Of a stretch of DNA of 64,000 nt, positions 24,563-63,512 are shown piece by piece (the stretch's first letter is position 1; each line of letters opens with the position of its first letter). Made by a program: the position numbers and the translations under genes. The DNA is from Blastobasis lacticolella. Taxonomy: Eukaryota > Arthropoda > Insecta > Lepidoptera > Blastobasidae. Below the pieces are notes generated by a model. That model was not told the DNA's origin. It was given only the letters and a program-made list of their open reading frames with translations, and searched no databases. The stretch spans positions 18,700,173 through 18,764,172 of the forward strand of contig LR990045.1 in the NCBI GenBank assembly GCA_905147135.1, read 5' to 3'.

Positions 24563-24787
24563 ATTATGTGCAAGGCGTGGATGCAGTGTACGTCCTGCGT
24601 CGAAATGATGATAATCTGGATACATTCAGCGGAGTGAATACGCTGACGCGCTGTGTCGATCCCATATATGTATATCAGGTTCAGACTCTTTCTTGAACTA
24701 CTGTATCGTCTGTCTCATCATCATTTATGACTGTCATATTACTTGGTTGGTGCTATTAGCAGTAAATAAGTTTGAAACTTGATTACA

Positions 24788-24824
24788 GTTTCTAATTATT
24801 TAAATACTTTAAATAATTAGAAAC
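24788..24824. repeat. 17-bp perfect hairpin, 3-base loop
   Basis: GTTTCTAATTATTTAAA, loop TAC, then the exact complement. Conserved in the second copy at 53227-53263, so it predates the duplication. Confidence 0.85.
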
Positions 24825-26149
24825 TAACCAAATTCTTCTTATGGACAGTGATAGCCGGAGGCGCTGCTATGGAAATCATTTGCATTCGGCCCCTCCCCCC
24901 CGCCGCCCCGCGATGCTCCCGCTGCTCTCGTCTAATTCGCTCCATTTCAACAGTTGCCACAAAATGGGAAAACGAAATGGAAACTTGTAAAAGGGAATCT
25001 GGTTACAATTTCGCGTCGACATTTATGCAAAAAGAAAAGTTTTTATCCCTTGTAGGCGCGTTTTTGTCCGTTCTATTTTGCGAGGCACCTCACCTCGCCG
25101 AGTCTAAATATTTTTTCGCTTTCATCAAATTATTTCGGAAGAGAACTTGTTCCTACCGAGTTTAGGTTTGGTTCATTGAATCTCGTGTCTGAAAATTCAG
25201 ATACTACATACCTACAAAGCGTATCTAAATACTTATGTTCGAAAAAGCTACGTAAAATGCAATTTTATTTCAAAGCTGCGTCCCCAGACGCGGCAGACGA
25301 AACAAAAATAAAACAAGAAAGCAGAGCGTAAGTGAGTCTGTAAGTAAATAAGCCCGCGGGGTCGAGTTGATCCGGTTGCTCGTCGTGTTACTATTTGTTT
25401 GTTGTCACACTACGCGCGAATCGCTTAGAAATATACAAGACGCTCCGCTACGCTAAAACAGGTCAAACTCAAACATTTAACTCCACGATGGAACAACGTT
25501 TTTGATAGTTTCGGTTTTTTTTTCAAACTTTCAAATAACACATGGAAACTAACGCATTTTCGATTCTTGTTTAGGAAATATATAAAATTCCTAAGAAAAC
25601 GATTTAATAAAAAAAAATTTCACACAATTCCTGTCGATTTTAGGCAATATATACTTTTCCTAGATTGAATAAATACTTTTCCTAGATTAAATAAATTTAT
25701 GGTGACATATACACGCGATTCTAATACAGCTTGAAAGCGGGCTTGAATGTGGTTCCATATAAACTGTGAGCTGCCTCCAGTTCATTAAAATGTGCCCTAG
25801 TTCAACGGTTAATCCAATTACAAATTGCGCAGGCTTGCTTTCCAATTGCGCAGCTCGTGTATATTATTATGTGTTTTTTGTAGCTTTATACTTTATTGAA
25901 AGTGTATAGAACCACAATGGCTATACCATCTGTCTGCGTCATTTATTCATGGGGAGATTTTACTCCAGTCGTTGCAGCTTTTACGAAATATATTTTTAAT
26001 CATAAACTTCCCCTCTTTAGATGGGTCGCTGATAAAGGAAGAGCTTTATCTAAAATTGAAATTTCTCCCTGAGATTTTAAAATGACGGCGTATTTTTAAG
26101 TACATGGTTATTTATATTTTACCTGTATTGTATTTGCTCGTAGTCGACG

Positions 26150-26365
26150 GAACCGATGGGCGAAGGGGTGGAGAGGCTCTTGAGTGGCGATCGCGTATCC
26201 GAAATCCACGAGATGAACGACGACCTCGTAAAGGTCATAAGGAGCCGATGGATGCTAAAGGCACACTGTGTGTCGATCGATGAGGAAGGTTGGAGTGGAG
26301 ATATTCTCAGCAGTGGACGTACAGTCAGATGATGGCTGATGAATATGACTTGTTGGTAAACAACA
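26150..26365 (+). mobile_element. RTE-type LINE 3' scrap in copy 1
   Basis: The plus strand retains 'NDDLVK' and 'SRWMLKA' followed by a CAGCAGTGGACGT end, the decayed C-terminus and 3' end of the same RTE family seen at 20.1-20.4 kb. The matching copy is 54590-54785. Confidence 0.55.
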
Positions 26366-27516
26366 CAAAATATTTATCAATTTCTTATATACTTTTTAAC
26401 TCGGTTAAATTACTTTATAAAGGGATACATATGTCAAAGGCCGGCAACGGTGCGGGCGGCGGTGATCACTCACCATCAGATGGCTTGCTAGCTACGTCGG
26501 TGGAATCTTAAATAAACAGGTTTGTGAAACAACTAGCACTTAGGGAATTGCAGGATTAACTATTCTTCAAACAAGGATTTTGTTGTCAAAGTTGATTTAC
26601 ATCTAAAGCTAAAGCTTGATTTACATCTGACTAAACGTGTTAGCGCAGGCAACGAGAAACTTACAAATATGAATCTAATGACGTCCGTATTTCCTACTAA
26701 ATATTGAAGAAGTTCTTCCGATATTTTAAAGAAATGGCGAGTATTCACCTACGAGTACAGAAAAAACTATTGATTGAAGTACTTACAACTTTATAATAAG
26801 AAAGGAGCGATAGCCGTGCGAGTCGATTTTTCTAGACATGCATTAGATGCTTTGCCACAAAACGCTGCGTTATCCTTATAAAGAAGAGAATCAGACAGTC
26901 TGTAACAATGTTACTTCTAAATGAAAGAAGAATGCCGTTAATATATTTCGTCTATTATGCTTCCATGTGCGTACAAAAATGTAACAAACGGGCCGTCACC
27001 GGCAGAACTGCGGCTGCCGCCGAGCTATTGGGCTCTCGAACTGCATCTGACGTCCCTCTAGCATTGTCATCGCCCGATTCCTATCATATCGAAGCCTAAT
27101 AATAGTTCAAATCGTCTTTGTATTTCTCTTTTGTCACGCTGTTATGTTACAACGATATTTTTGGAATGGTATGTTCTACGTTGGGGTCTTGTCTGCAACG
27201 TGTTTGAATTGCCTACAGCGGAGAATACAGATATTTATTATTTAGGAGACACTGTTGAAGGCATGATTGGTGTTTTTGAGTACTGTATCGAGTCATACTC
27301 GTATTGCATACCATTTCGTAGACCCAGTGTTTCCTATCACGTACTGTTACCTAACTCTCCACTCACCGATGAGGCGCAAGCCCAATTAATAGAGCGTCGT
27401 ATTAATATTCCGGTTATGTCTCGCACGCGGGGGTCCGAAGTCCGCCATGATCATATTCCAGGATTTGACAGAAGCTCGACTACCGTAAGATCGCCGTGGC
27501 TCTGAAAACGAGACCA

Positions 27517-27769
27517 GTAGCCGTATTCACAATGATTAGAAACCGTTTCCGAACGATTCGACACGAAATTCGTGAGCTGCGAATCCGTGTCGATTGAATC
27601 GAAAACTGTTATTCAGAATCCCGATAGATTCCACGGAAACTCTACTCTCTATAACATATGAAAATTTAATCAAAATTAACTGAAATCACATTTTCCTAAG
27701 AACTTTTGCGGGGTCCTTTGTCGATTCCGTATCCGAATCCGATTTCCGAGAGATTGTGAATACGGCTAC
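27517..27769. mobile_element. 253-bp MITE in copy 1
   Basis: The ends are GTAGCCGTATTCACAAT and its inverted complement. The interior is non-coding with smaller inverted stretches. The copy at 55894-56146 has the same length and a 19-bp perfect inverted end (…AATGA). Confidence 0.7.
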
Positions 27770-28574
27770 AGATTCAATCACGGTTAGTTCAGTCGTTTGA
27801 ATGTGCAGGTTGTTAAGAGTAAGTTAGTGTTAAAGGTTAGTGTACAACTTATGCATATAACACAAAAAATGTCATTGGTATATACGGCGGCAATGGAGAT
27901 CGTTCTCAGTACATCCAACCGACCCGCTAGTAAATTGCCTATACGATATGGTCGCTTTTACGGCACCCGACATTGAAAAGGTAGGTTCTTTTCCACTCTG
28001 CTGGACACCACACGGCGATAATTACACGGCCAACTTTATTATGAAACATGACATACTTAATGAGGTATTCCTCAGAGCGGCAAAACGCGCCGCCGCGGCG
28101 GCAGCCGCGACATCGAGCACATTCCCAGTAGAGGCGCATTATATGGCAATCAGAAATAAATTCTTAATAATAGCTGGGAAATGAGGGAAGGAGAGGAGGA
28201 GCGTGCAATGTATTCTACTCACTGCTTCGTCATGGTTGTCTAAATCGCAATACATTGCTGTGAAAAGTGACTAATAAAAATTTTAATAATGAAATTGCAC
28301 CGGAGCGTACATCGTACTTGATCCATAGCCAGCTCCGTACGTATTTCGTTTATTAGATTTGTCATTGGCTAATTGTTTACAGGAAATTATGTACAGCCAA
28401 AATCATTCTACAACCTTAGTGCTCACAGTTCAAACTAGTTTTGTAATAATACAAACACCCCCTCAAAGTAATGTCTGGAAACTCCACTTTGATAGCATTT
28501 ACGGCAGCAAATTCAAAGCCTGTCATAAATTTCTTAGGGCGGTTGCATATCCTACTAAGTAGTTGTGTACAATT

Positions 28575-28858
28575 TCCTGGATTAGAGTGTACTTAAAAGC
28601 GGAATCAAATCCATTGATGGATTGTAGTATACTTTGAAGCGGAAACAAATCCATTAATGGATAAGAGTGTACTCAGAAGCGGAATCTAATACATCCATGG
28701 ATTTGACCAATGGATTACAGTGGAATACACGTTCCACTCTAATTCGGTCTCTAGTCAGTTTGTAGGAATGGATGAGAGAGTACTTAAAAGCGGAATCTAA
28801 TCCATCAATGGATTTGACCAATGGATTAGAGTGGAATAGGCGGTTCAAATTTGGTGTA
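28575..28858 (+). repeat. degenerate minisatellite in copy 1
   Basis: Related units built on GCGGAATC(T/A)AATCCAT, then ATGGATTTGACCAATGG, then ATTAGAGTGGAATA. Each unit carries small internal palindromes around AATCCAT/ATGGATT. The equivalent array is 56955-57215. Confidence 0.7.
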
Positions 28859-29144
28859 AGAATGAATTCCCTTTGGTTTATTTTAAGTTTTTTGTTCGCC
28901 ATCTCACTTGTGGGTAAGTGACGATGCGGCCGAAGATCGATCTTCCTGGGTTAGATCCTCCCAGTAGATTGCACCTCTATGGCGTATGTGCTCGGTGGGC
29001 TGCGATGACTTAGCAGCGCGCCGCAACATAAATTATTCGCTGAACCCTCTTTGATACGCCGCGCTCGCCGGCGGTACATTATTAATTCCGGCGCGGTTAA
29101 CTCGGCGCCGCATATTGGCACCCGACGGGTAACAGGTAAACAGG

Positions 29145-29430
29145 GAAGAGAGAGGTCGTTTCGGCTTACACGCATCGTTTACAACCGTACACTTAGTTAC
29201 GGCTATTAGGGTGCTTTTGACAGCGACGTCATCCATTAGTAAAAGCAACTGGATAGAATATAATTTTTAATTGCACTAGCAAGGTATTTGATCGCCATCT
29301 CACTTGGTTGTAAGTGGAAGAATGTAAGAAACCCCAGCACCCCTGGTGTTGCTGATGTCCATAGCCGGCGGTGACCACTTTCCATCAGGTGGCCCGCATG
29401 CCTGTTTGCCTGCCGTATAACATAAAAAAA
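29145..29430 (+). repeat. local repeat with LINE-type tail, unit 1
   Basis: It starts with tttcggcttacacgcatcg, runs through acttagttacggctattagg, and ends in the tail gaccactttccatcaggtgg plus poly-A. It recurs at 31565-31690 (partial), 57543-57830 and 60013-60311, so the block was duplicated inside each large copy. Confidence 0.65.
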
Positions 29431-29439
29431 AACATTGCC

Positions 29440-29535
29440 TGCGTGTGTGTACCTTGATCATTATAATCTGGACGCCCTGGAGGTTGTTCCTAGACAGGCA
29501 TTCTTCATCTTCGGCCACATCGTCACTTACCTACA
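29440..29535 (+). mobile_element. LINE 3' end scrap
   Basis: Carries attataatctggacgcc and cttcggccacatcgtcactt, the 3' end of the LINE represented with coding sequence at 47363-47640. Confidence 0.55.
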
Positions 29536-29737
29536 GGATCTTAAGTCGGCTAATATACTTCATTCTATCGAATTGTAATTGGATCGAAATAGCAGGTCAA
29601 TGGCAGTTTTAAAGATGGCGGACAAATGCCTGGCTAGCCTATTAAAAAACATCCATCTGAACTTCTCATGTTCCGTAATAAACTAAACAGGCTATGGATG
29701 TTTGCAATAAGTACATCACTCCAATGTTGTCCAGTAA

Positions 29738-30106
29738 AATATTTTCGACGTTCAAACTCTCCATGTTGAAACATCTCCAGAGAAATCATTCCACAACCTC
29801 GCACGGGAGAAAGTTTTTAACAATAAATTATTTGAAAACTGTCTCTCTGAAAATAAGCTGGAGTATTATCATGACCATACGATAGAAGTTATAACTTATA
29901 AGATTAATGAAGTGCCTGAAGTTTTGCCGATTCAGAGCCACCGATTCGAATGTAACGATCCAGATTCGCCATCGAGTGCAAGGTTGATTGTAGAAGTTTT
30001 CACATTTAAAATACCTGGTTCTACTGCTCCGTTGCCCATCGTAAAAGATCGGAAAACCACACAAACGGTGGTATTTGTCAATTTTAGTAACGATACGAAC
30101 AATTGA
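29738..30106 (+). other. conserved open frame of 122 codons, function unknown
   Basis: Open from just after a TAA at 29735 to TGA at 30104-30106, encoding 'SFHNLAREKVFNNKLFENC' ... 'RLIVEVFTFKIP' ... 'VNFSNDTNN'. The same frame is open in copy 2 (58138-58506). I noticed nine base differences inside the frame and all change an amino acid, so there is no sign of purifying selection. It may be a decayed gene or transposon exon. It lacks an ATG near the start in copy 1. Confidence 0.3.
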
Positions 30107-30924
30107 AAATCCGGCGTATAGGTAATATCTAAGGTAAGGATTGTTTACCTTAATTACTTAGTTACCCATCCAGATCCCGAACATTACGGTCATTGCTTAA
30201 GCACGCTACCACTAGACCAGTCTCGCTTATAATACTACTGTTAGTTTACTAAATTTAAGACAAATCTTAAAATATAATTTGGCTGATATTAGACGATGAA
30301 CTGTAATATTTTAACAGCTGATTTAACTTGCAATGGTTTTACTGCTGTATTTAAACTAATTTAATCTTAAATCTACTCGATTGTTAATAAACTGTCAAAC
30401 TTGACATTTGCGATTGGTGTTATCACTTATAAAACACATTCCATTTTGTAGAAAATAAATGGATTTAATCTATTCGGAGGTGCTCAAAATGACAACACTG
30501 AGGATGCGCTTATAAAAGCAAGTGTAACGTTGTGTCTGGCCCCTTATTATTCTGGTGATCATAGAATAAACAACAACTGTTCTGTATGTTGTATATATAT
30601 TATGTTTTTATTCAATATACAAAGTATAACACCATACTTCTGACTTTGTATCATTCAACACTACATTTTACAAAATTATTTTTGTCTTCCATCCACTTTC
30701 CATCAGATGACTGGCATGGTGTCTTATGATAGGGATGATAGTCGTGTCAGGAGAAAAGTTGTGGGCTAAGCCAAGTAAAAGTGTCAAGACTGAGTGAGCG
30801 ACGACAACGATAAGATAGTGGGTGTGGGCGAGTGATAAAGTGAGGTTGCGAATGTTTGCTTTAATAAAATGGATGTAGGTAGATAACTTGTTATCCTTAG
30901 TAGACATAATAAATAAACAGAAAT

Positions 30925-31170
30925 AAATATGCTTGGACAATTCACACAGCGCCATCTGGCGCCGTATAGTAAGCAAAGCTTGTATTATGGGTGCCAAAAA
31001 ACGATAAAATACTTAGATATTTTTTAAATACTTACTTATTATACAGATAACACCCAGACCCGAAACAGAAATTAAAATTCATCATTTAAATTTCCGTCCG
31101 GCCTGGAATCGAACCCGGGACCTCTGCATGGCCGACCGAGATGTTAACCAACTGGAACACTCAGATCGTT
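30925..31170 (-). mobile_element. tRNA-derived SINE, copy 1
   Basis: On the minus strand the head carries a B-box GGTTCGATTCC (31115-31105) and an A-box-like stretch near 31150. A conserved body (gggtctgggtgt; gcgccatctggcgc) follows to about 30930. Relatives lie at 36350-36575, 46606-46831 and 59350-59600. Confidence 0.65.
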
Positions 31171-32104
31171 AGTTAGTAGATATGTGATTTGTGAATTCAT
31201 AGCATATCTTTACATCTTTTAAACGAACAAATTTTATTAATAGGAACGTATATCTTTTACTGGTAGTTTGTTATTTGATCCTTATCTAAAGAAGAACTAC
31301 CTAACGGAATTACGGAGTTTGCTGTGATGTATGAAGCTATCAATTTGGCTACAAGCCACGGAACCACGCTATAATTTAATTTTCGGAAGCCAGTTTAATA
31401 TGCCAACCAGTCTAAAATTCTTCTCTTACACGCGCCTTTGCGTCACAACTTCACGCATCTGCGACCCCCATGTGACAGGTTGCTATGAGCGACGGTGATC
31501 AAGTACCATCAGTTCAGGTGACCTGCCGCTGGCGCTAGGTCATTTGCCTTAATATAATACAATGAAGAGAGAGATCGTTTCGGCTTACACGCATCGTTTA
31601 CAACCGTACACTTAGTTACGGCTATTAGGGTGCTTTTGACAGCGACATCATCCATTAGTAAAAGCAACTGGACAGAATATAATTTTTCTTAACAGGGTGA
31701 AATGGGGCACTAACCTAATAAATACCAAGCTCAGAATGAGTTACTCTGCAAACAAAGTTACAGATTTTTAGGAATCTCCGTGTAACAAATAGCAGTAAAC
31801 CCATCGATATTACCCTTTGACATAATTTTAGCAGATCTGAACAATTGTTCAGATCACCATCATAATCAAAAGACCATTAGGTACTTACGTAAGTACGAAA
31901 AAAACGATAACATAATTGCTAGACCCAATGAAATTAATGACTCTCTGATGTACTCTTGGACCATGACTGGTGTGACGACTATGTTAACATGTAGAGTAGT
32001 TATTAGATTTGTAGATTTTTTTTTACTTTTTTTTTATTTTATGTACGCTTTGTTTATAGTTAGTTATTTCTTACTTTTTGTACCTAATGATTGTCGTGTC
32101 TATG

Positions 32105-32210
32105 CGCAATATCTGGTGTTGCTGATGTCCATAGGCTGCGGTGACAACTTTCCATCATGTGGCCCGCTTGCCTGTTTGTCTGCCGTATAACATAATAATA
32201 AAAAAAAAAT
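32105..32210 (+). mobile_element. LINE/SINE tail
   Basis: Short copy of the shared 3' tail (ggtgttgctgatgtccatag ... gtataacataataat, poly-A). It has point changes in the normally constant ccatcaggtgg (here ccatcatgtgg). Confidence 0.6.
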
Positions 32211-32974
32211 TAGTCAATTATAGTCGAGGCTCTATTGGATCGCTCCCATACAGAACCTTAAAAAAATTTATAGAGTTATGGGCTTCACCACATTTATTCC
32301 TTAAGTAATTCTAAGCATTTCTAGTACATGTCCCACTGTTATACTGCTGCCAGGGGCGAGGGGGGTATAAAGGACCCCTCCAACCACCATATTTTAAAAA
32401 ATCGGTATGTTTCCCGCTGGCTACTACAGCAAGTTTGGTATCATTTTCGTATAAAATAATGATGTTGAATTCATTACCGGTATTTAATTTTATCATTTTC
32501 GTAGTAATATTTTGAATAAATCGTAAATAATCGTAAATAAAAGTAAAAAGATAACAATTGTTTTTCTGCTTTGAGAGCTAATATCTTTTAAGCAACAAAA
32601 AATATAACAAAAAAAAAAATACTTTAAAAAAGCGAATTTTATGCCGATTCTAAAAATATAAATTTTAAGAACCTCTTGCTTCTAAAAGTTGGTAAAATAT
32701 ATTCTGTAACATCACGGTGGTGACAGTTCCCTCTAAAAGGCGATTTACTTATTTACATATTGGTCTGTATTATCAAGCTACTTTAGTATGTTTGGTATCA
32801 TTTTTATATAAATAGAATATGCAGCATTCATTTCTGGTATTATCTTAAACATTTTCATAATAATTTTTCTAAAAAATCGTAAAAACGTGAAAAGTTTACT
32901 ATGTAATTAACTATAATACTTAAAAGTATATTCTAACAAAGTATATTCTAATTTGCTAAAAATACTGATATTCA

Positions 32975-33310
32975 TAATGTCAATTTAAGAAACAAAAATA
33001 AACTGGTAACACCGTTGTTCAGACTAAGTAAAGTAAATTCATCTTTCATGGGTAACTGTATAAGATTTTATAATCATATTCCTGAATGTATTATTAATTT
33101 GCCTGAATTACAATTTAAAGATAAGGTGAAAACAACTTTAATGAAAAAAGCCTATTATAAAATTGATGAATATATCAATGACAAAAATGTATGGTGTACT
33201 ACTAGCTCTTCGAAATAGGAAGTTATTTATAAATTTATAATTTTGTTAATTGAGTGAGGATGATTTGATGTGTAATAGTCATTGAATAACAAATATTTTT
33301 TTAATGTGTA
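32975..33310 (+). mobile_element. LINE ORF2 C-terminal fragment
   Basis: The plus strand encodes 'KLVTPLFRLSKVNSSFMGN', 'CIRFYNHIPECI' and 'LMKKAYYKIDEYINDKNVW' followed by TAG at 33218. This is the usual Jockey/CR1 ORF2 end. It fills the gap between duplication copy 1 and the inverted-repeat left arm. Confidence 0.65.
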
Positions 33311-34669
33311 CGGCATTGGCAGCGCATGCTCACTTAAAAGTCTGCCTGGTGGTGGCATGGGGGTCGGGTCGTTCTATTCCCTCAAATATGGTTGAATTGG
33401 ACTGTCTGTCAAGTTTAGTTCCTTTCTCATCCGCGAGCAATGTTATTTGCACAAATGTCTGAACTTTTTCATATAGTACGCAGTATGCTAAAATGCTACT
33501 TACAAGGGAACCCTTAGATTCCAAAACATCTGAAATTTAGTGGATATGTAGAGTAACCGATTCTGACCTTGATACCATTTTTAATTTTTACCCTAAATCA
33601 CCCTGTACACTAAGTCACTTATATGTAAGTAGATGATCAAGCCATCAAAACGTTAGACGGGTAGCAAAGCAAAGTCCCACTTACCCACTCTGCATTGTAA
33701 AGTTGGCTGGTAGAAGACGTTTTCACGAATAAATAAATATTAAGTGGACAAGTTGTCACCGTGTGATTGCCAAGTCATTACTATAACCCCCACTAATCTC
33801 GTGCAGCAATATAGATATTTATATGTAAAGTAATATAGCTTAGAATAGTACATTGGCTATAATTTATCCCAAAATTCAATGAGGTCAAGATGCAAAGCCG
33901 GGGCGGCAAACAAACAGAGGGAGGCGAACGAACAAGCGTGAAATGAAAAGCATATCTATTTCATTGCAGATAAAGTCCATAGTAGTTAGAAAGTATAATG
34001 ATCTTATACACTACGTGTAACAATACCTGAGAGTATGAACAATGATACAAAACTACGTTTGATTGACACAATTAAGCCACATTCATTTCCGATGTGGGTA
34101 CAAATTCGCGGCACCAGGGATATGTACGTCAGTGGCCCCAGAGTAAGCCTTCGCATTTCTCATTGATCACTTTCAGTGCTGTCGCTCCGAACCCTACGCA
34201 ACAGTGACGCGGCTCTTTTACGAATCAGGGTTGGAAATTGTCAGTGTGAGCGTCTGCAAACATACCTGATGCGCTGCAGTGACGTGGGAGCTCCAACAAC
34301 TGAAATAAATTAATGATTGGGGATTGAAATTATAAGGACCTTATTGTAAATATTTCATTAGAGTGTTAATTAAAATGCCACACACAAGGGAACATTAGCT
34401 ACTATGATATTCCAAAACATCTGAAAAGTTTATGTAGACAACGTGATGCCGCGTTTGTAATAATTGCTAAATCGATTTATATAAATTATTTATATCAGAA
34501 CCCTTACAGTTTCGCTACGTCCGTCTGTCCGTCCGCGGTTTTTCCCAAAAACTTAAAAGAGCTGAAATTTGTTATTGTTATACATATTATAAGTTATAAG
34601 ATAAAATCTTTTGAAAGTTCCCTTCTTTGGGTATCTCCGAAACACGTAAATCGGGGGATAAAATTTTCG

Positions 34670-34765
34670 CCGCAGGTGTCGCTAAAGGCGGCAGGGACCA
34701 CTTTCCATCAGGTGACCCGCTTGCCCGAATACCTTGCTGCCTACCATAAAACTAATATAAAAAAT
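34670..34765 (+). mobile_element. decayed LINE/SINE tail in left arm
   Basis: Contains gaccactttccatcaggtga and cgcttgcccg before an A-rich end. The mirror copy is 48420-48511. Confidence 0.5.
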
Positions 34766-35559
34766 TCTTATTCAGTCTTCAAAGAAACCTTAAACCGAAT
34801 CGCAGCTAGAGTCAACTGCGTGGGTAACTGAATAAGCTGCCGTATTATAGACCAGCGTTCTGTGCCAAATAAAATATCTAAACCGATTTCGTCTACATCC
34901 ATTCCTGCTATTTCATTCGATTTGATTTATAACCAACAGCCTCATATTCACACTCCCATACATGTTACATGTTGGTGCGGCAATGAATCCTAGCTAGCTC
35001 ATGACAGCAACAGGCTCCCCCGCATTACGTTTAATCAACGGAATTCAAACGGCCTCCCAATTTATATGGACTCCCGGTGCGGTAATGCTGTATTATCTTA
35101 ATTAGAACGAGGTCCAAAGCTGTTTATAGGAACGGTTAACGCGGCGCCGTAATCGCGCGTGGGCTGTATAATATTACCGTCTATCTTCGGCGTCGTTGTC
35201 ACTTAGTGGGGTACACTGAAAGTTTTGCGAAACTCATTAATGAAACTATTAACATGTATAGTGATACGATAACTGCTTTTCGAAGTATTCTCCATTAGTT
35301 TTAAACACTTTTCCATTCGGTCAAACCGTTTTTGAAAACATGAGGACTATTGGTCTGAGGGCTTGTTTTTCACATGCAGGTTGAAAGCTATCACGGCCTC
35401 TTCCAGCCCCGTAAATGTCAAACCTCTCAGCAAATGTTTTATTTTTAGAAATATAAAGAAATCGCATGGTAACAGGCCTGGAATATGTGCGAGATGGGTC
35501 ACTAATTCACAATCACTTTTTATTTTTATTTTAGACTATCCTGGTGGTAAGTGACGATG

Positions 35560-35826
35560 CGGTCGAAGATGGAACATGCCTGTCAAGGAACAGCCTATTC
35601 ACTCAAGCCTTGAAGGCGTCCAGATTATAGTGATCAGGGAAAACACTCGCAGGCAACGCGTTCCATTCCTTAGCCGTTCGCATTATAAAGGTTGAACCAA
35701 ACCGGCTCGTGCGGGTTGCTGGAAGATCCACGACATAAGGATGAAGCGCTCGCCCGGATCGCGTTTCCCGATGGCGGAAAGGGGTCGGCGGAATGAGGTC
35801 GTGCTTTTCAGAAGGCAAAACTTAGT
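35560..35826 (-). mobile_element. LINE 3' part with ORF2 end, left arm
   Basis: The minus strand encodes '[18 protein letters not shown]' and 'YNLDAFKA' then a stop, followed by the 3' end cttcgaccgcatcgtcactt. The conserved E-W-N-x-L-P end marks a CR1/Jockey-group ORF2. The identical mirror copy is at 47363-47621. Confidence 0.7.
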
Positions 35827-36349
35827 TTGCCTTGTTCGCTGTGTGTGCGAAAACATTGTCATGGTGCAATTAGGATGCGACTTCTTGTATTAAATGCAGC
35901 CGATATTTGGGTGATGATTAGTGACTGTTTGGAAAGTACCTGCGAAACGGATGGCTATATTTTATTTTGGATGTTCATGGATTTCATCAATGGAAATATA
36001 TGGATAGATATTTGTAGGTACAATAAAAAAACAAACAAAACTGAAATTAATAAATTAAATAACCATGGTATTTCCACGAAGTTATTGGAATCGTATACTA
36101 TTTAGATCAAGTCCCTGTCCTACACGTGACAAATCCATGATTTAGATAATTAAATTATCTGCGTTTGCTTTGATCACGGAGAATAGAGAAAATCAATCGA
36201 TGTGGAAAGTGTGAGGGCCTACTTGCTATAGAGAGATGATGACGATAATGTTGTTGTTTAGATTACCATAGATACAGTCAGTCCAAATAACTAGCTACTC
36301 TTGATGACGTATCTGTACATAGGAAAACATACATATAACCAAAACAAAA

Positions 36350-36575
36350 ATTATGCTTAGACAATTCACATAGCGCCATCTAGCTCCAAAGTAAACAAAG
36401 CCGTTTGTTATGGGTGCCAGAAAACTACTCATACATTTTTAAATACATACTTATACAACAGCCAGACCCATAGCAGAAATTTAAATTCTTAATTTAAATT
36501 TCTGCCCGACCCGGAATCGAACCTGCGACCTCGATGTGGCAGACTGGAATGTTAACCAAATCACTCAGGTCGTCA
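36350..36575 (-). mobile_element. tRNA-derived SINE, left arm
   Basis: Minus-strand B-box GGTTCGATTCC (36523-36513) in a tRNA-like head, followed by the common body with gggtctggc and gatggcgctatg. Mirror copy at 46606-46831. Confidence 0.7.
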
Positions 36576-42135: not shown

Positions 42136-42139
42136 ATAC

Positions 42140-49780: not shown

Positions 49781-49805
49781 TCCTTGCCATAAACAATGGC
49801 AAGGA
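49781..49805. repeat. 10-bp hairpin at the outer end of the right arm
   Basis: TCCTTGCCAT, loop AAACA, then ATGGCAAGGA. Homology to the left arm stops at its first three bases. Confidence 0.8.
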
Positions 49806-52590: not shown

Positions 52591-52839
52591 AGGAGTGGTT
52601 ATAAACACACTACACAAACATGGGGCTCAAACGCCCACACTTTATTAGTATGTTAAAGGATATATTATTATGTTGATAATAAGGTTTTGTATAAGCTAAG
52701 TAAATTAGTAGATAATGTTAATCTGCACGAGTCCTTTGTGGTTATATTTAGGGAGATGAAGCTGGCTCTTTAGGAATGTGCGTTGAATACCTATGTTTCT
52801 TGGACAGAATGCCAGTGCCTGGACTAGTGAACAGTATAA

Positions 52840-52990
52840 CCATAGCTCTCCGATGGTCGATGGGACACATTCTTGAGAGGCGACCACGTATAGGCAAACG
52901 CAGCGTGTTACGCCCAACCACAACTGGGATGGACAACCTCTTATAAAGGTCGTACAAAGCCGATGTATGCAAAAGGCTAAGGCTGTGAAT
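52840..52990 (+). mobile_element. RTE-type LINE scrap
   Basis: The plus strand reads 'RWSMGHILERRPRIGKRSV', a deleted version of the RTE C-terminus seen at 20.1-20.4 kb. It abuts the left end of duplication copy 2. Confidence 0.55.
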
Positions 52991-54589
52991 AGAACTAGCC
53001 GATTATGTGCAAGGCGTGGATGCAGTGTACGTCCTGCGTCGAAATGATGATAATCTGGATACATTCAGCGGAGTGAATACGCTGACGCGCTGTGTCGATC
53101 CCATATATGTATATCAGGTTCAGACTCTTTCTTGAACTACTGTATCGTCTGTCTCATCATCATTTATGACTGTCATATTACTTGGTTGGTGCTATTAGCA
53201 GTAAATAAGTTTGAAACTTGATTACAGTTTCTAATTATTTAAATACTTTAAATAATTAGAAACTAACCAAATTCTTCTTATGGACAGTGATAGCCGGAGG
53301 CGCTGCTATGGAAATCATTTGCATTCGGCCCCTCCCCCCCGCCGCCCCGCGATGCTCCCGCTGCTCTCGTCTAATTCGCTCCATTTCAACAGTTGCCACA
53401 AAATGGGAAAACGAAATGGAAACTTGTAAAAGGGAATCTGGTTACAATTTCGCGTCGACATTTATGCAAAAAGAAAAGTTTTTATCCCTTGTGGGCACGT
53501 TTTTGTCCGTTCTATTTTGCGAGGCACCTCGCCTCGCCGAGTCTAAATATTTTTTTGCTTTCATCAAATTATTTCGGAAGAGAACTTGTTCCTACCGAGT
53601 TTAGGTTTGGTTCATTGAATCTCGTGTCTGAAAATTCAGATACTACATACCTACAAAGCGTATCTAAATACTTAAGTTCGAAAAAGCTACGTAAAATGCA
53701 ATTTTATTTCAAAGCTGCGTCCCCAGACGCGGCAGACGAAACAAAAATAAAACAAGAAAGCAGAGCGTAAGTGAGTCTGTAAGTAAATAAGCCCGCGGGG
53801 TCGAGTTGATCCGGTTGCTCGTCGTGTTACTATTTGTTTGTTGTCACACTACGCGCGAATCGCTTAGAAATATACAAGACGCTCCGCTACGCTAAAACAG
53901 GTCAAACTCAAACATTTAACTCCACGATGGAACAACGTTTCTGATAGTTTCGGTTTTTTTATCAAACTTTCAAATAACACATGGAAACTAACGCATTTTC
54001 GATTCTTGTTTAGGAAATATATAAAATTCCTAAGAAAACGATTTAATAAAAAAATTTTTCACACAATTCCTGTCGATTTTAGGCAATATATACTTTTCCT
54101 AGATTGAATAAATACTTTTCCTAGATTAAATAAATTTATAGTGACATATACACGCGATTCTAATACAGCTTGAAAGCGGGCTTGAATGTGGTTTCATATA
54201 AACTGTGAGCTGCCTCCAGTTCATTAAAATGTGCCCTAGTTCAACGGTTAATCCAATTACAAATTGCGCAGGCTTGCTTTCCAATTGCGCAGCTCGTGTA
54301 TATCATTATGTGGTTTTTGTAGCTTTATACTTTATTGAAAGTGTATAGAACCACAATGGCTATACCATCTGTCTGCGTCATTTATTCACGGGGAGATTTT
54401 ACTCTAGTCGTTACAGCTTTTACGAAATATATTTTTAATCATAAACTTCCCCTCTTTAGATGGGTCGCTGATAAAGGAAGAGCTTTATCTAAAATGAAAT
54501 TTCTCCCTGAGATTTTAAAATAACGGCGTATTTTTAAGTACATGTTATTTATATTTTACCTGTATTGTATTTGCTCGTAGTCGACGGAA

Positions 54590-54785
54590 CCGATGGCGAT
54601 GGGGTGGAGAGGCTCTTGAGTGGCGATCGCGTATCCGAAATCCACGAGATGAACGACGACCTCGTAAAGGTCGTAAGGAGCCGATGGATGCTAAAGGCAC
54701 ACTGTGTGTCGATCGATGAGGAAGGTTGGAGTGGAGATATGCTCAGCAGTGGACGTACAGTCAGATGATGGCTGATGAATATGAC
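54590..54785 (+). mobile_element. RTE-type LINE 3' scrap in copy 2
   Basis: Counterpart of 26150-26365 with 'NDDLVKVVRSRWMLKAHC'. Confidence 0.55.
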
Positions 54786-55893
54786 TTGTTGGTAAACAAC
54801 ACAAAATATTTATCAATTTCTTATATACTTTTTAACTCGGTTAAATTACTTTATAAAGGGATACATATGTCAAAGGCCGGCAACGGTGCGGGCGGCGGTG
54901 ATCCCTCACCATCAGATGGCTTGCTAGCTACGTCGGTGGAATCTTAAATAAACAGGTTTGTGAAACAACTAGCACTTAGGGAATTGCAGGGTTAACTATT
55001 CTTCGAACAAGGATTTTGTTGTCAAAGTTGTGGATGGTATTTTCGGCAAAAGCTTGATTTACATCTGACTTAACGTGTTAGCGCAGGCAACGAGAAACTT
55101 ACAAATATGACTCTACTGAAGACGTATTTCCTACTAAATATTGAAGAAGTTCTTCCGATATTTTAAAGAAATGGCGAGTATTCACCGACGAGTACAGAAA
55201 AAATCGATTTCTCTAGATATGCATAAGATGCTTTACCACAGATGGCTGCGTTATCCTTATAAAAAAGAGAATCAGACATTCTGTAACAATGTTACTTCTA
55301 AATGAAAGAAGAATGCCGTTAATATATTTCGTCTATTATGCTTCCATGTGCGTACAAAAATGTAACAAACGGGCCGTCACCGGCAGAACTGCGGCTGCCG
55401 CCGAGCTATTGGGCTCTCGAACTGCATCTGACGTCCCTCTAGCATTGTCATCGCCCAATTCGTGCGCGAATAAGCCTAATAATAGTTCAAATCGTCTTTG
55501 TATATCTCTTTTGTCACGCTGTTATGTTACAACGATATTTTTGGAATGGTATGTTCTACGTTGGGGTCTTGTCTGCAACGTGTTTGAATTGCCTACAGCG
55601 GAGAATACAGATATTTATTATTTAGGAGACACTGTTGAAGGCATGATTGGTGTTTTTGAGTACTGTATTCATACTCGTATTGCATACCATTTCGTAGACC
55701 CAGTGTTTCCTATCGCGTACTGTTACCTAACTCTCCACTCACCGATGAGGCGCAAGCCCAATTAATAGAGCGTCGTATTAATATTCCGGTTATGTCTCGC
55801 ACGCGGGGGTCCGAAGTCCGCCATGATCATATTCCAGGATTTGACAGAAGCTCGACTACCGTAAGATCGCCGTGGCTAGGAAAAACGAGACCA

Positions 55894-56146
55894 GTAGCCG
55901 TATTCACAATGATTAGAAACCGCTTCCGAACGATTCGACACGAAATTCGTGAGCTGCGAATCCGTGTCGATTGATTCGAAAACTGTTATTCAGAATCCCA
56001 ATAGATTTCACGGAAACTCTACTCTCTATAACATATGAAAATTTCATCAAAATTAACTGAAAGCACATTTTCCTAAGAACTTTTGCGGGGTCCTTTGTCG
56101 ATTCCGTATCCGAATCCAATTTCCGAGTCATTGTGAATACGGCTAC
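55894..56146. mobile_element. 253-bp MITE in copy 2
   Basis: Counterpart of 27517-27769 with a 19-bp perfect inverted end (GTAGCCGTATTCACAATGA). Confidence 0.7.
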
Positions 56147-56954
56147 AGATTCAATCACGGTTAGTTCAGTCGTTTGAATATGCAGGTTGTTAAGAGTAAG
56201 TTAGTGTTAAAGGTTAGTGTACAACTTATGCATATAACACAGAAAATGTCATTGGTATATACGGCGGCAATGGAGATCGTTCTCGGTACATCCAACCGAC
56301 CCGCTAGTAAATTGCCTATACGATATGGTCGCTTTTTCGGCACCCGACATTGAAAAGGTAGGTTCTCTTCCACTCTGCTGGACACCACACGGCGATAATT
56401 ACACGGCCAACTTTATTATGAAACATGACATACTTAATGAGGTATTCCTCAGAGCGGCAAAACGCGCCGCCGCGGCGGCAGCCGCGACATCGAGCACATT
56501 CCCAGTAGAGGCGCATTATATGGCAATCAGAAATAAATTCTTAATAATAGCTGGGAAATGAGTGAAGGAGAGGAGGAGCGTGCAATGTATTCTACTCACT
56601 GCTTCGTCATGGTTGTCTAAATCGCAATACATTGCTGTGAAAAGTGACTAATAAAATTTTTAATAATGAAATTGCACCGGAGCGTACATCGTACTTGATC
56701 CAGAGCCAGCTCCGTACGTATTTCGTTTATTAGATTTGTCATTGGCTAAATGTGTACAGGAAATTATGTACAGCCAAAATCATTCTACAACCTTAGTGCG
56801 CACAGTTCAAACTAGTTTTGTAATGATACAAACACCCCCTCAAAGTAATGTCTGGAAACTCCACTTTGAATTTATGGCAGCAAATTCAAAGTCTGTCATA
56901 AATTTCTTAGGGCGGTTGCATATCCTACTCTAAGTAGTTGTGTACAATTTCCTG

Positions 56955-57215
56955 GATTAGAGTGTACCTTAAAGCGGAATCAAATCCATTGATGGATTGT
57001 AGTATACTTTGAAGCGGAAACAAATCCATTGATGGATTAGAGTGTACTCAGAAGCGGAATCTAATACATCCATGGATTTGACCAATGGATTACAGTGGAA
57101 TACACGTTCCACTCTAATCCAGTCTCCAGGCAGTTTATAGGAATGGATGAGAGAGTACTTGAAAGCGGAATCTAATCCATCAATGGATTTGACTAATGGA
57201 TTAGAGTGGAATAGG
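56955..57215 (+). repeat. degenerate minisatellite in copy 2
   Basis: Counterpart of 28575-28858. Confidence 0.7.
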
Positions 57216-57542
57216 CGGTTCAAATTTGGTGTAAGAATGAATTCCCATTGGTATTTTTTTATTTTTTGTTATATTAGACAAGACAGGCATTTGTCCGCCA
57301 TCTCACTTGTGGGTAAGTGACGATGCGGCCGAAGATGGATCATCCTGGGTTAGATCCTCCCAGTAGATTGCACCTCTATGGCGTATGTGCTCGGTGGGCT
57401 GCGATGACTTAGCAGCGCGCCGCAACATAAATTATTCGCTGAACCCTCTTTGATACGCCGCGCTCGCCGGCGGTACATTATTAATTCCGGCGTGGTTAAC
57501 TCGGCGCCGCATATTGGCACCCGACGGGTAACAGGTAAACAG

Positions 57543-57830
57543 GGAAGAGAGAGATCGTTTCGGCTTACACGCATCGCTTTACAACCATACACTTAGTTAC
57601 GGCTATTAGGGTGCTTTTGTCAGCGACGTCATCCATTAGTAAAAGCAACTGGACAGAATATAATTTGTAATTGCACTAGCAAGGTATTCGATCGACGTCT
57701 CACTTGGTTGTAAGTGGAAGAATGCAAGAAACCCCAGCACCCCTGGTGTTGCTGATGTCCATAGGCGGCGGTGACCACTTTCCATCAGGTGGCCCGCATG
57801 CCTGTTTGTCTGCCGTATAACATAAAAAAA
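57543..57830 (+). repeat. local repeat with LINE-type tail, copy 2 unit 1
   Basis: Counterpart of 29145-29430, ending in the shared tail and poly-A. Confidence 0.65.
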
Positions 57831-58137
57831 AACATTGCATGCGTGTGTGTACCCTGATCATTATAATCTGGACGCCTTGGAGGTTGTTCCTAGACAGGCA
57901 TGCTTCATCTTCGGCCACATCGTCACTTACCTACAGGACCTTAAGTCGGCTAATATACTTCATTCTATCGAATTGTAATTGGATCAAAATAGCAGGTCAA
58001 TGGCAGTTTTAAAGATGGCGGACAAATGCCTGGCTAGCCTATTAAAAAACATCCATCTGAACCTCTCATGTTCCGTGATAAACTAAACAGGCTATGGATG
58101 TTTGCAATAAGTACATCACTCCCATGTTGTCCAGTAA

Positions 58138-58506
58138 AATATTTTCGACGTTCAAACTCTCCATGTTGAAACATCTCCAGAGAGATCATTCCACAACCTC
58201 GCACGGGAGAAAGTTTTTAACAATAAATTCTTTGAAAACTGTCTCTCTGAAAATAAGCTGGCGTGTTATCATGACCATACGATGGAAGTTATAACTTATA
58301 AGATTAATGAAGTGCCTGAAGTTTTGCCGGTTCAGAGCCACCGATTCGAATGTAACGATCCAGATTCGCCATCGAGTGCAAGGTTGATTGTAGAAGTTTT
58401 CACATTTAAAATACCTCGTTCTATTGCTCCGTTGCCCATCGTAAAAGATCGGAAAACCACACAAACGGTGGTACTTGTCAATTTTAGTAACGATACGAAC
58501 AATTGA
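58138..58506 (+). other. conserved open frame of 122 codons, copy 2
   Basis: Counterpart of 29738-30106. An ATG appears at 58282 here where copy 1 has ATA. No recognised domain. Confidence 0.3.
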
Positions 58507-59349
58507 AAATCCGGCGTATAGGTAATATAGAAGGAAAGGATTGTTTACCTTAACTACTTAGTCACCCATCCAGTTCCCGAACATTGCGGTCATTGCTCAA
58601 CCTTGGTTATCGGTTTCACAAGCATGCTACCACTAGACCAGTGCCGCTTATAATACTACTGTTAGTTAACTAAATTTAAGACATATCATAAAATATAATT
58701 TCGCTGATATTAGACGATGAACTGTAATATTTTAACAGCTGATTTAACTTGCAATGGTTTTTCTGCTGTATTTAAACTAATTTAATCTTAAATCTACTCG
58801 ATTGTTAATAAACTGTCAAACTTGACATTTTCGATTGGTGTTGCCATTTATAAAACACATTCCATTTTGTAGAAAATAAATGAATTTAATCTATTCGGAG
58901 GTGCTCAAAATGACAACACTGAGGATGCGCTTATAAAAGCAAGTGTAACGTTGTGTCTGGCCCCTTATTATTCTGGTGATAATAGAATAAACAACAAATG
59001 TTCTGTATGTTGTATATCAATTATGTTTTTATTCAATATACAAAGTATAACACCATACTTCTGACTTTGTATCCTTCAACACTACATTTTACAAAATTAT
59101 TTCTGTCTTCTATCCACTTTCCATCAGATGACTGGCATGGTGTCTTATGATAGGGATGATACTCGTGTCAGGAGAAAAGTTGTGGGCTAAGCCAAGTAAA
59201 AGTGTCAAGACTGAGTGAGCGACGACGACGATAAGATAGTGGGTGTGGGCGAGTGATAAAGTGAGGTTGCGAATGTTTGCTTTAATAAAATGGATGTAGG
59301 TAGATAACTTGTTATCCTTAGTAGATATAATAAATAAACAGAAATAAAT

Positions 59350-59600
59350 ATGCTTGGACAATTCACACAGCGCCATCTGGCGCCGTAAAGTAAGCAAAGC
59401 TTGTATTATGGGTGCCAAAAAACGATAAACTACTTATATATTTTTTAAATACTTACTTATTATACAGATAACACCCAGACCCGAAACAGAAATTAAAATT
59501 CATCATTTCAATTTCTGTCCGGCCTGGAATCGAGGTCCCGGGGACCTCTGCATGGCCGACCGAGATGTTAACCAACTGGAACACTCAGATCGTTAGTTAG
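59350..59600 (-). mobile_element. tRNA-derived SINE, copy 2, B-box destroyed
   Basis: Counterpart of 30925-31170. The B-box core is replaced by the hairpin GAGGTCCC-G-GGGACCTC (59532-59548), so this copy should no longer bind TFIIIC there. Confidence 0.65.
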
Positions 59601-60012
59601 TAGATATGTGATTTGTGAATTCATAGCATATCTTTACATCTTTTAAACGAATAAATTTAATTAATAGGAACGTATATCTTTTACTGGTAGTTTGTTATTT
59701 GATCCTTATCTAAAGAAGAACTACCTAACGGATTAACTTAACTGTTTGCTGTGATGTATGAAGCTATCAATTTCAGGCCTATATTTATCTCCAATTTAGT
59801 ACAAGCCACGGAACCACGCTATAATTTAATTTTCGGAAGCCAGTTTAATATGCCGACCAGTCTAAAATTCTTCTCTTACACGCGCCTTTGCGTCACAACT
59901 TCACGCATCTGCGACCCCCATGTGACAGGTTGCTATGAGCGACGGTGATCAAGTACCATCAGTTCAGGTGACCTGCCGCTGGCGCTAGGTCATTTGCCTT
60001 CCTATAATACAG

Positions 60013-60311
60013 TGAAGAGAGAGATCGTATCGGCTTACACGCATCGTTTACAACCGTACACTTAGTTACGGCTATTAGGGTGCTTTTGACAGCGACGTCA
60101 TCCATTAGTAAAAGCAACTGCACAGAATATAATTTTTAATTGCACTAGCAAGGTATTCGATCGCCGTCTCACTTGGTTGTAAGTGGAAGAATGTAAGAAA
60201 CCCCAGCACCCCTGGTGTCGCTTATGTCCATAGGCGGCGGTCCATAGGTGACCACTTTTCATCAGGTGGCCCGCTTGCCTGTTTTTCTGCCGTATAACAT
60301 AATAATAAAAA
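60013..60311 (+). repeat. local repeat with LINE-type tail, copy 2 unit 2
   Basis: Second full unit inside copy 2. It carries a small internal duplication of gtccatagg within the tail (about 60226-60250). Copy 1 has only the first part of this unit (31565-31690). Confidence 0.65.
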
Positions 60312-60459
60312 AAAAATTAGTCAATTATAGTCGAGGCTCTATTGGATCGCTCCCATACAGAACCTTTAAAAAATTAATAAAGTTTGGGCTTCACCACATT
60401 TATTCCTTAAGTAATTCTAAGCATTTCTAGCACATGCCCCACTGTTATACTGCTACCAG

Positions 60460-60786
60460 CGCTCCCGACCCGTGGTACAACTGCGATGTCCAACTGGTTG
60501 TACTACGGAGAAGTAAAGTTACCCATGGTTCAACTGGTTATTCTATGGGGAAATATCTTTACCAATGGTTCAACTCGAGTGAGTATTTATTTCCTTGGTC
60601 CAACTAGTTGTACTACTGGGAATTGAATGTATCTATGGAACAACTACTGGTACTAAACAGGAAAAGGTTATCTATCAATGCTGAATGCAATGCAATTACT
60701 ACCTCTTTTGATTAATTGTCTATTGATGATTAAAACGTTGATATTGACGCGTGAATATTTCTTGTTTTCACACGATACCAAAGTAA
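60460..60786 (+). repeat. left terminal inverted repeat of the MULE
   Basis: About 327 bp that pairs with 62607-62934 with few mismatches. It ends just two bases before the first exon's ATG, so the promoter and 5' UTR must lie inside the repeat. Confidence 0.88.
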
Positions 60787-60787
60787 A

Positions 60788-60958
60788 ATGTCGGAAAATT
60801 GTGAACTTGCAATAATTGAAAGAAAAGGCGGTAATGTTTTATTATCAAAAGGTCGTCAATTTTACAAAGTGAAAGCTTTTAAAGATGAGTCGCGTGGCGC
60901 ATATTGGCGGTGCTCTATGTACAAAAAACTCAAATGTTGTGGATTTGTTACAGTTAAG
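60788..60958 (+). CDS. MULE transposase exon 1: FLYWCH zinc finger
   Basis: ATG at 60788, 57 codons, donor AAG|gtacga. Encodes 'GRQFYKVKAFKDES' and 'GAYWRCSMYKKLKCCGFV', the F-x-Y-W-x-C ... C part of a FLYWCH finger. The remaining His lies in exon 2 ('EKEHSC'). FLYWCH fingers bind DNA and probably recognise the element's ends. The splice is inferred from phase agreement and domain continuity. Confidence 0.75.
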
Positions 60959-60981
60959 GTACGACTGTATGTATGAGTATT

Positions 60982-61165
60982 AGAGTGCGTTTCCACTGAC
61001 GCGGAGCTGTGTGGAGTGCAGAGGAGTGGACCGTGGATTGGTCAATCAAAGTGCTTGTAATCTCCCTCTGTTTCACATTAATGTAACTAAATATACTGAT
61101 ACGCTGCATTTTAAAGTGAGAGTGGAACTCAGCTCCGCTCCACTCCGCTTCAATGAAAACACTCT
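60982..61165. mobile_element. MITE-like insert in the MULE intron
   Basis: Imperfect inverted ends (AGAGTGCGTTTCCACTGA and, reversed, AGAGTGTTTTCATTGAAG) continue into GCGGAGC-type arms. It occupies most of the 292-bp intron 60959-61250, so the intron may have been lengthened by it. Confidence 0.5.
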
Positions 61166-61250
61166 CTACACTCCTTCGTATTTATTGAAATTGTATATGT
61201 ATGCTTTGCTTTATATTTGTTATATCATTGTTTATATTATTTTTTATCAG

Positions 61251-62428
61251 GACATGCAAATAATTAAAGAAAAAGAGCACTCTTGCCAACCTAACTACGG
61301 TAAAAACGAAATAGCCGAAACAGTTGTAAGTTTAAAAAATGAGGCAGCAAGCACAGATGTCCCGATGCCACAATTATACAAGAGACACGAGGCAAAGTTG
61401 AGAGACAGAGGTTACGATCTAATAGACAGTATACCAAGTTTCGATAATCTAAAGCACTCCCTTTATATCGCGAGGCATAAATCAGCGGGAGTATCGAGAA
61501 CAACTTTTCATCTGTGGACGAAGTTGATGTGCCTGACCAGTTTCTTGATTTTATGCTGGGTTGCGACACAGAAAAAAGAATACTTATATTCTGTACCTCC
61601 CAAGCAAGAGAAATGATTGACCACATTAACGAATTTTTTGGAAATGGCACTTTCAAATGTAGCCCGCACCCGTACGTACAGCTGTTTACTTTGCACGGTG
61701 ATATTGGGAGTGATAACAAAATTACTAATGTTGTTCCACTAATTTATGCCCTACTCTTGGACAAAAAAAAAGAGACATACGTCACAATGCTTCGTATAAT
61801 CAAAGCGCAATTGCCAAAATGGGAGCCTAAAAAGTACCATTGCGACTATGAAACTGCAGCAATCAACGCAATGTTGGAAGTATTCCCACGCGTAGAGATA
61901 AAAGGCTGTTACATGCATTTTTCTAAAAATATTTGGAAGAAGGCAAAGGTATTGGGACATATAAAGTCCAAACCCGAGAAAAGAGTAGTCGGAATGTGTT
62001 CTATATTACCCTTAATACCAGCCGGGATAATAAATGAGGCATGGACATACATAAAGAACGAAGTAAAAACATTGGGATTTCTGAAAATGGGTAAATTCTT
62101 GAAGTACATAAGTCGCGTTTGGTTAAATAAGAAAATCAAAAGGTACATAACTGTCTTCTGAGAACGTCACAGGACGAATAATGTGGCAGAGTCCTTCCAT
62201 GGCGACTTAAACAAGGCAGTTAACAAGAATAATGTGAATTTAATCAGATTTTTAAATGCACTTCTTGAAAAAGGTAACTTATCCAAGGGACCTATGCCGA
62301 AGAAGCGTAAGGTCGGTAATAAAAGAAGGGCACAATATATAATGAACGATGATTATGTAAGACATGTACAACTGCAGTTATTGGATGGACACATAACTAT
62401 TGGGCATGCAATCGACAAATTGCGTTAG
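61251..62428 (+). pseudogene. MULE transposase exon 2, frameshift and stop
   Basis: The acceptor is tttttatcag at 61250. The frame runs from 'DMQIIKEKEHSCQPN' to about 61480, then shifts. From about 61481 it continues as 'ENNFSSVDEVDVPDQF' and 'TLHGDIGSDNKITNVVPL' (DDE region), then 'HCDYETAAINAML' and 'GCYMHFSKNIWKKA', typical MULE motifs. A TGA at 62159-62161 interrupts just before 'RTNNVAESFHGDL', the conserved R-T-N-N-x-x-E motif. The end carries 'PKKRKV', a classic nuclear-localisation motif, and stops at 62428. Otherwise well preserved, so inactivation is recent. Confidence 0.82.
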
Positions 62429-62566
62429 GCACATGCCTATAAAGATGATGATAATATAATATTCCTAAAAAAAAATTTTCAATAAATAAATGTTTATTAT
62501 TAACATATTTATTGCACCAATCGCTTGCACGCATTTTTTACAATATTTAATATTCATAATTCCACC

Positions 62567-62581
62567 GTTGTACCACGGGTC
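62567..62581 (-). repeat. internal copy of the MULE terminal word
   Basis: GTTGTACCACGGGTC occurs here as well as at the outer right end (62914-62928), just inside the right terminal repeat. Confidence 0.6.
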
Positions 62582-62606
62582 AAAATCTTAAATATAAAAA
62601 AAAGAG

Positions 62607-62934
62607 TTACTTTGGTATCGTGTGAAAACGAGAAATATTCACGCGTCAATATCAACGTTTTAATCATCAATAGATAATTAATCAAAACAGGTAGTAATTG
62701 CATTGCACTTCAGCATTGATAGATAACCTTTTCCTGTTTATTACCAGTAGTTGTTCCATAGATATATTCAATTCCCAGTAGTTCAACTAGTTGGACCAAG
62801 GAAAGAAATACTCACCCGAGTTGAACCATTAGTAAAGATATTTCCCCATAGAACAACCAGTTGAACCATGGGTAACTTTACTTCTCCGTAGTACAACCAG
62901 TTGGACATCACAGTTGTACCACGGGTCGGGAGCG
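62607..62934 (-). repeat. right terminal inverted repeat of the MULE
   Basis: Partner of 60460-60786. Confidence 0.88.
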
Positions 62935-63512
62935 GCTGCCAAGGGCGAGGGGGGTATAAAGTACCCCTCCAACCACCATACTTAAAAAAATCTGTATGTT
63001 TCCCGCTGGCTACTACAGCAATTTTGGTATCATTTTCGTATAAAATAAAGATGTTGAATTCATTACCGATATTTAATTTTATCATTTTCGTAGTAAAATT
63101 TTGAATAAATCGTATAAAAGTAAAAAGATAACAATTGTTTTTCTGCTTTGAGAGCTAATATCTTTTAAGCAACAAAAAATATAACAAAAAAAATACTTTA
63201 AAAAAGCGAATTTTATGCCGATTCTAAAAATATAAATTTTAAGAACCTCTTGCTTCTAAAAGTTGGTAAAATAAATTCTGTAACGTCACGGTGGTGACAA
63301 TTCCCTCTAAAAGGCGATTTACTTATTTACAAATTGGTCTGTATTATCAAGCTACTTTAGTATGTTTGGTATCATTTTTATATAAATAGAATATGCAGCA
63401 TTCATTTCTGGTATTATCTTAATCATTTTCATAATAATTTTTCTAAAAAATCGTAAAAACGTGAAAAGTTTACTATGTAATTAACTAAAATACTTAAAAG
63501 TATATTCTAACA

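What the first reader, a model, noticed from the sequence alone, without database searches (positions are those of the whole stretch)
24563..63512. A direct 8-10 kb duplication brackets a 16-kb near-perfect palindrome
Copies at 24563-32938 and 53002-63512 lie in the same orientation on either side of arms at 33399-41044 and 42136-49783. The direct copies differ at a few percent and by many indels; the inverted arms differ at about seven sites I could see. Two duplications of different apparent age, nested this way, suggest a rearrangement-prone locus, or two haplotypes plus a fold-back joined by the assembler.
Basis: partly seen in the sequence, partly recalled or inferred. Interest (0 to 1): 0.8.

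Follow-up and report, generated by a model that had tools for sequence, protein, structure and literature searches.

The report
Young palindrome between older direct repeats
In a repeat-rich stretch of what looks like a butterfly or moth genome, a recent fold-back copying event seems to have made a 16-kb DNA palindrome between two older copies of another segment; it is an ordinary kind of rearrangement, unless it is an assembly error.

Summary
Arms 33399-41043 and 42137-49783 match at 99.9% (6 substitutions, 2 one-base indels). Direct copies 24563-32939 and 53002-63513 differ by 3.2% substitutions plus 25 gaps; the size difference is mostly one MULE transposon (about 60460-62934) found only in the second copy. 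The window looks lepidopteran and is rich in transposable elements. The arms carry a dead Jockey-type retrotransposon whose coding sequence continues from arm 1 into the 1,093-bp spacer. So arm 1 looks like the parent and arm 2 the inverted, truncated copy. Best reading: fold-back or template-switch repair copied about 7.6 kb backwards and was then joined to other sequence; an 11-bp hairpin lies on that outer join. The direct copies look like older paralogues: their flanks hardly match, so simple side-by-side haplotigs are disfavoured. Without reads an assembly fault cannot be excluded. Known kind of rearrangement; modest interest.

The parts
24563..32939 (+). Direct copy A. Its first 491 bp are identical to copy B; about 3% divergence overall
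32952..33398 (+). X: reads by eye like the tail of a 5'-truncated Jockey-type retrotransposon (no database search was made with it), between copy A and arm 1; preceded by a 15-bp tandem repeat at 32923-32951
   Evidence: resemblance to Jockey is by eye
33399..41043 (+). Palindrome arm 1 (taken as the parent arm)
38551..42136 (-). Dead Jockey-type non-LTR retrotransposon; ORF2 from about 41564 to 38608 with two in-frame stops and one frameshift; 3' end at about 38551; the leader 41565-42136 is assigned to it by inference
41044..42136 (.). Single-copy spacer (putative fold-back loop), 1,093 bp; its left part is ORF2 coding sequence of the arm-1 element
41220..41264 (.). 19-bp perfect hairpin, 7-bp loop, inside ORF2; lies where the frame shifts relative to relatives
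42137..49783 (-). Palindrome arm 2 (taken as the derived, inverted copy); its element lacks the 5' end
49780..49806 (.). 11-bp hairpin, 5-bp loop, lying on the outer join of arm 2 (49783/49784)
49784..53001 (+). Y: segment between arm 2 and copy B, with a degenerate reverse transcriptase (RVT_1, E 4.7e-11)
53002..63513 (+). Direct copy B
60460..62934 (.). MULE DNA transposon inserted only in copy B (terminal inverted repeats about 330 bp, 96% alike)

Best explanation
The palindrome is a real, fairly recent inverted duplication made by a fold-back or template switch during repair of a break in a dead retrotransposon. The growing 3' end left its template at what is now 42136, re-primed on the opposite strand about 1.1 kb back (at 41043), copied some 7.6 kb backwards to the complement of 33399, and the new end was joined to segment Y at 49783/49784. 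The 1,093-bp loop remains as the single-copy spacer. Copies A and B are an older pair of paralogous segments in the same orientation; copy B took a MULE insertion. Shown in the sequence: both repeats, their divergence, which side of the inner border keeps the reading frame, the hairpin on the outer join. Inferred: that the DNA exists in the animal as assembled, the break-repair route, the order of events, and that both joins belong to one event.
For: Arms differ at 8 events in 7647 columns, A/B at 277 in 7966. All 7 of the 7 relatives tested (picked from the 120 listed of 538 hits) align in one stretch straight across the arm-1/spacer border, so that side is ancestral and the arm-2/spacer border is new. 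Two premature stops interrupt the frame at the matching places in both arms, so the element was probably dead before the copying. The one difference between arms inside ORF2 reads V in arm 1 and A in arm 2, where the two relatives whose alignment I read there (P0001, P0002) have I. In human fold-back inverted duplications a single-copy spacer of 766-70,466 bp was present at 21 of 21 sequenced junctions, 3 of the 21 at LINE/SINE repeats (PMC3907307, passages). Short fold-back insertions at breaks are documented in yeast (PMC11724301, abstract).
Against: No reads, no relative's genome and no copy numbers were available. Inverted microhomology at the inner join cannot be measured because the original sequence beyond 42136 is not in hand. 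Short perfect hairpins are in excess across the whole window (8 against a mean of 0.575 in 40 resamplings), so the one on the outer join may be coincidence (my hand estimate, about 3%, not computed in a call). The low arm divergence could also come from gene conversion in an older palindrome.
Confidence: 0.55

Rival explanations
1. Assembly or library artefact: chimeric or fold-back reads, or two divergent haplotypes threaded into one contig, produced the palindrome and/or the direct repeat.
For: Fold-back and amplification palindromes are a known long-read problem (PMC12870357 passages; PMC6218980 passages). A 3% difference with indels is within what I recall for butterfly haplotypes (recalled, not looked up).
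Against: The flanks of A and B do not match as allelic copies should (two weak matches left, none right; the right side covers under 500 bp). The inner border is not a plain turn-back but leaves a 1.09-kb loop; the cited tool's default calls fold-back artefacts only within 200 bp. The arms carry 6 substitutions, none inside a run of four or more equal bases. No N in the window.
Confidence: 0.27
2. An older palindrome kept nearly identical by arm-to-arm gene conversion, as on sex chromosomes; the age inferred from the arms is then wrong.
For: Arms are far more alike than A and B. Exchange between repeats here is plausible: the first 491 bp of A and B are identical, longer than the longest run in any of 5000 permutations (407).
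Against: Nothing found ties the window to a sex chromosome, and no gene was recognised in the arms apart from the dead element (six-frame Pfam scan of 33399-38302: no hit). A young duplication needs no conversion.
Confidence: 0.12
3. A/B and the palindrome arose in one complex event of the DUP-TRP/INV-DUP or ODIRA type.
For: Direct repeats flanking an inverted segment are the outline of that structure (PMC10766186 passages).
Against: No inverted copy of A lies in the window beyond short matches of 37-251 columns, and the two duplications differ about thirty-fold in divergence.
Confidence: 0.04

Closest known systems
Fold-back inverted duplications (human, Hermetz et al. 2014, PMC3907307; passages seen)
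   Same: Inverted copy separated from its parent by a short single-copy spacer; some breakpoints lie in interspersed retrotransposons
   Different: Interstitial and 7.6 kb here, against megabase duplications next to terminal deletions or translocations in the passages seen; inverted microhomology could not be tested here
Short template-switch and fold-back hairpins (PMC7954356, passages; PMC11724301, abstract)
   Same: Short perfect inverted copies next to a join or inside a coding sequence, as at 41220-41264 and 49780-49806
   Different: No ancestral sequence is available here to map the switch points
DUP-TRP/INV-DUP and ODIRA rearrangements (PMC10766186, passages)
   Same: Inverted segment lying between direct repeats
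   Different: No long inverted copy of the direct repeat in the window, and very different divergences

Membership tests
Fold-back inverted duplication | Inverted copy adjoining its parent across a single-copy spacer | tested here: met
   Spacer 41044-42136 has no second copy in the window at E 1e-10; the rest of the genome was not searched
Fold-back inverted duplication | Parent arm continuous with the spacer, copy arm discontinuous | tested here: met
   7 of 7 relatives tested align through the arm-1/spacer border; the arm-2 frame starts at 42134
Fold-back inverted duplication | Short inverted microhomology at the spacer/copy join | tested here: inconclusive
   Sequence originally beyond 42136 is not available
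Fold-back inverted duplication | Present in the DNA of the animal | not testable with these tools
   No reads; the own-genome search did not complete
DUP-TRP/INV-DUP | Inverted third copy of the duplicated segment | tested here: not met
   Only short matches (37-251 columns) to A in inverted orientation within the window
Haplotig false duplication | Flanks of the two copies homologous on at least one side | tested here: not met
   Left flanks: two weak matches of 76 and 86 columns only; right flanks: none; the right test covers only 459 and 487 bp, and transposon insertions at the borders could hide homology
MULE transposon (insert in copy B) | MULE transposase domain, terminal inverted repeats, short target duplication (8-10 bp, recalled) | tested here: met
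   PF10551 E 8.2e-9; TIRs about 330 bp at 96%; by eye an 8-bp duplication, each copy with one change against the empty site in A

The most novel reading that the evidence does not exclude
This genome, or this region, is unusually prone to fold-back template switching at all scales: hairpins with 11-19-bp stems (8 seen against a mean of 0.575 in resamplings) and a 7.6-kb-armed palindrome would be small and large products of one process, with the same kind of hairpin left at the palindrome's outer join.
Probability: 0.12. Interest if true: 0.55.

Novelty: new member of a known kind. Interest (0 to 1): 0.27.

Why it matters
If real, it is a well-preserved interstitial fold-back duplication in what looks like a lepidopteran genome, with the direction of copying readable from a dead retrotransposon. 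It would be a natural case for testing whether short hairpin mutations and large palindromes come from the same repair process. If it is an assembly fault, it is an example of one that passes simple checks.

Tried and rejected
Rejected: palindrome formation coupled to insertion of this retrotransposon, because two stop codons lie at matching places in both arms, so the element was probably dead before copying. Rejected: copy B longer because a longer unit was duplicated; it is mostly the MULE insert. Rejected: the palindrome as one giant inverted-repeat transposon; by eye the flanks show no target duplication.

Led nowhere: tRNA and Rfam scans (none); Pfam on six frames of 53001-60003 in copy B (none) and of 33399-38302 in arm 1 (none); six frames of the spacer gave only a weak endonuclease match in the expected frame (E 0.0013, below cut-off) and one stray match; protein search with the 122-codon frame at 58138-58503 (none); two spacer patterns in viral contigs (none). 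A species name: the retrotransposon's best named hits are 66-71% to several butterflies; the gypsy frame's best named hit over most of its length is 66%, Parnassius mnemosyne, with shorter unnamed hits up to 87%. Paper searches seen as listings only and judged from titles and starts of abstracts: searches (Lepidoptera, W chromosome, palindrome; 9 papers; false duplications in Lepidoptera; 1 paper; butterfly segmental duplications; 2 papers; template-switch hairpins with insects; 8 papers): nothing used.

Full report
What is there. The self-comparison confirms both repeats at the stated places. The inverted arms 33399-41043 and 42137-49783 are 99.9% identical with 6 substitutions and 2 one-base indels; one indel lies in a run of T, the other in A/T-rich sequence. 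The direct copies 24563-32939 (A) and 53002-63513 (B) align over 7941 positions with 252 mismatches and 25 gaps. B holds an extra 2,483 bases, a MULE transposon with terminal inverted repeats of about 330 bp plus its target duplication, and A has the empty site. A in turn has some 350 bases of its own near 31690-32110 (gaps of 143, 11 and 197).

Where it is. Protein hits of the retrotransposon frames point to Lepidoptera: named hits Euphydryas editha 71%, Iphiclides, Pieris and Colias 66-67%, Parnassius 66% for the gypsy frame. The species is not identified, and the own-genome search did not complete. The six-frame scan of 53001-60003 in B and of 33399-38302 in arm 1 found no Pfam domain. Y was scanned in its three + frames only; copy A and the rest of B were not scanned separately, apart from single frames of B.

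Which arm is the parent. The arms carry a Jockey-type element with its 3' end pointing outward. Read on the minus strand, its ORF2 begins near 41564 inside the spacer, crosses the arm border at 41043 and ends at 38608. Seven relatives that I picked from the 120 listed hits were aligned; all 7 cross that border in one stretch. At the mirror border (42136/42137) the frame is cut. So the arm-1 side looks ancestral and arm 2 the copy. The frame is broken by two stops at matching places in both arms, so the element was probably already dead. The single difference between arms inside ORF2 (40958 / 42222) gives V in arm 1 and A in arm 2; P0001 and P0002, the only two relatives read at this site, have I, which leaves arm 1 the less changed.

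How it probably formed. A single-copy spacer between parent and inverted copy is the mark of fold-back duplications: in the human set all 21 sequenced junctions had one, 766-70,466 bp long, median 3,428 bp (PMC3907307, passages seen); here it is 1,093 bp. The outer end of arm 2 joins Y, and an 11-bp hairpin with a 5-bp loop sits on that join. Short fold-back insertions at breaks are documented in yeast (PMC11724301, abstract). The spacer also holds a 19-bp perfect hairpin at the place where ORF2 loses a few matching codons and its frame relative to relatives, the pattern described for short template switches (PMC7954356, passages). Perfect hairpins (stem 11 or more, loop up to 40) number 8 in 47,976 bases counted with one copy of each repeat, against a mean of 0.575 (maximum 3) in 40 first-order resamplings within 2-kb blocks. 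Several of these are A/T-rich and some may belong to transposons, so the excess is not proof of one process, and it also means that the hairpin on the outer join could be coincidence.

The direct copies. Their divergence is uneven: 44 events in 2205 columns up to 26766, 176 in 5439 to the right with 26767-26822 and 31680-32346 left out (Fisher p 0.003). The first 491 bp are identical, longer than the longest run in any of 5000 permutations (407). That suggests past exchange between the copies, pieces of different age, or a conserved stretch. The flanks of A and B hardly match: left flanks show two weak matches of 76 and 86 columns, right flanks none over the short stretch available. On the right of A the homology stops beside what reads by eye as a truncated Jockey tail, so the true end of the duplicated unit may be hidden there.

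Artefact or real. Against an artefact: loop, second join, substitutions, flanks that hardly match, no N. For it: no reads, and fold-back and amplification palindromes are known faults (PMC12870357 and PMC6218980, passages seen). I put the artefact at about one in four.

Verdict. It is a good example of a known kind of rearrangement in transposon-rich DNA, of modest interest.

Noticed in passing
10835-11152 (+): A frame with weak matches to HYDIN/CFA65-like and Cep192 immunoglobulin-like domains (best E 0.0005, below the curated cut-offs), perhaps an exon of a cilia or centriole gene near the left of the window
   Followed up: partly
15636-18482 (-): Degenerate gypsy-type LTR retrotransposon (RT, RNase H, integrase domains; further frames); a 90-bp direct repeat at 14751 and 19757 may be a remnant of its LTRs
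   Followed up: partly
1-949 (-): Open frame of 316 codons at the window's edge with a retrotransposon gag match just above cut-off and weaker zinc-knuckle matches
   Followed up: no
24787-24825 and 53226-53264: 18-bp perfect hairpin with 3-bp loop, identical in both direct copies
   Followed up: no
24563-25053: 491 bp identical between copies A and B, which differ by about 3% overall; possible gene conversion or conservation
   Followed up: partly
5002-6840 (+): A second non-LTR reverse transcriptase with long open frames, split in two (355 and 255 codons), left of the repeats
   Followed up: no
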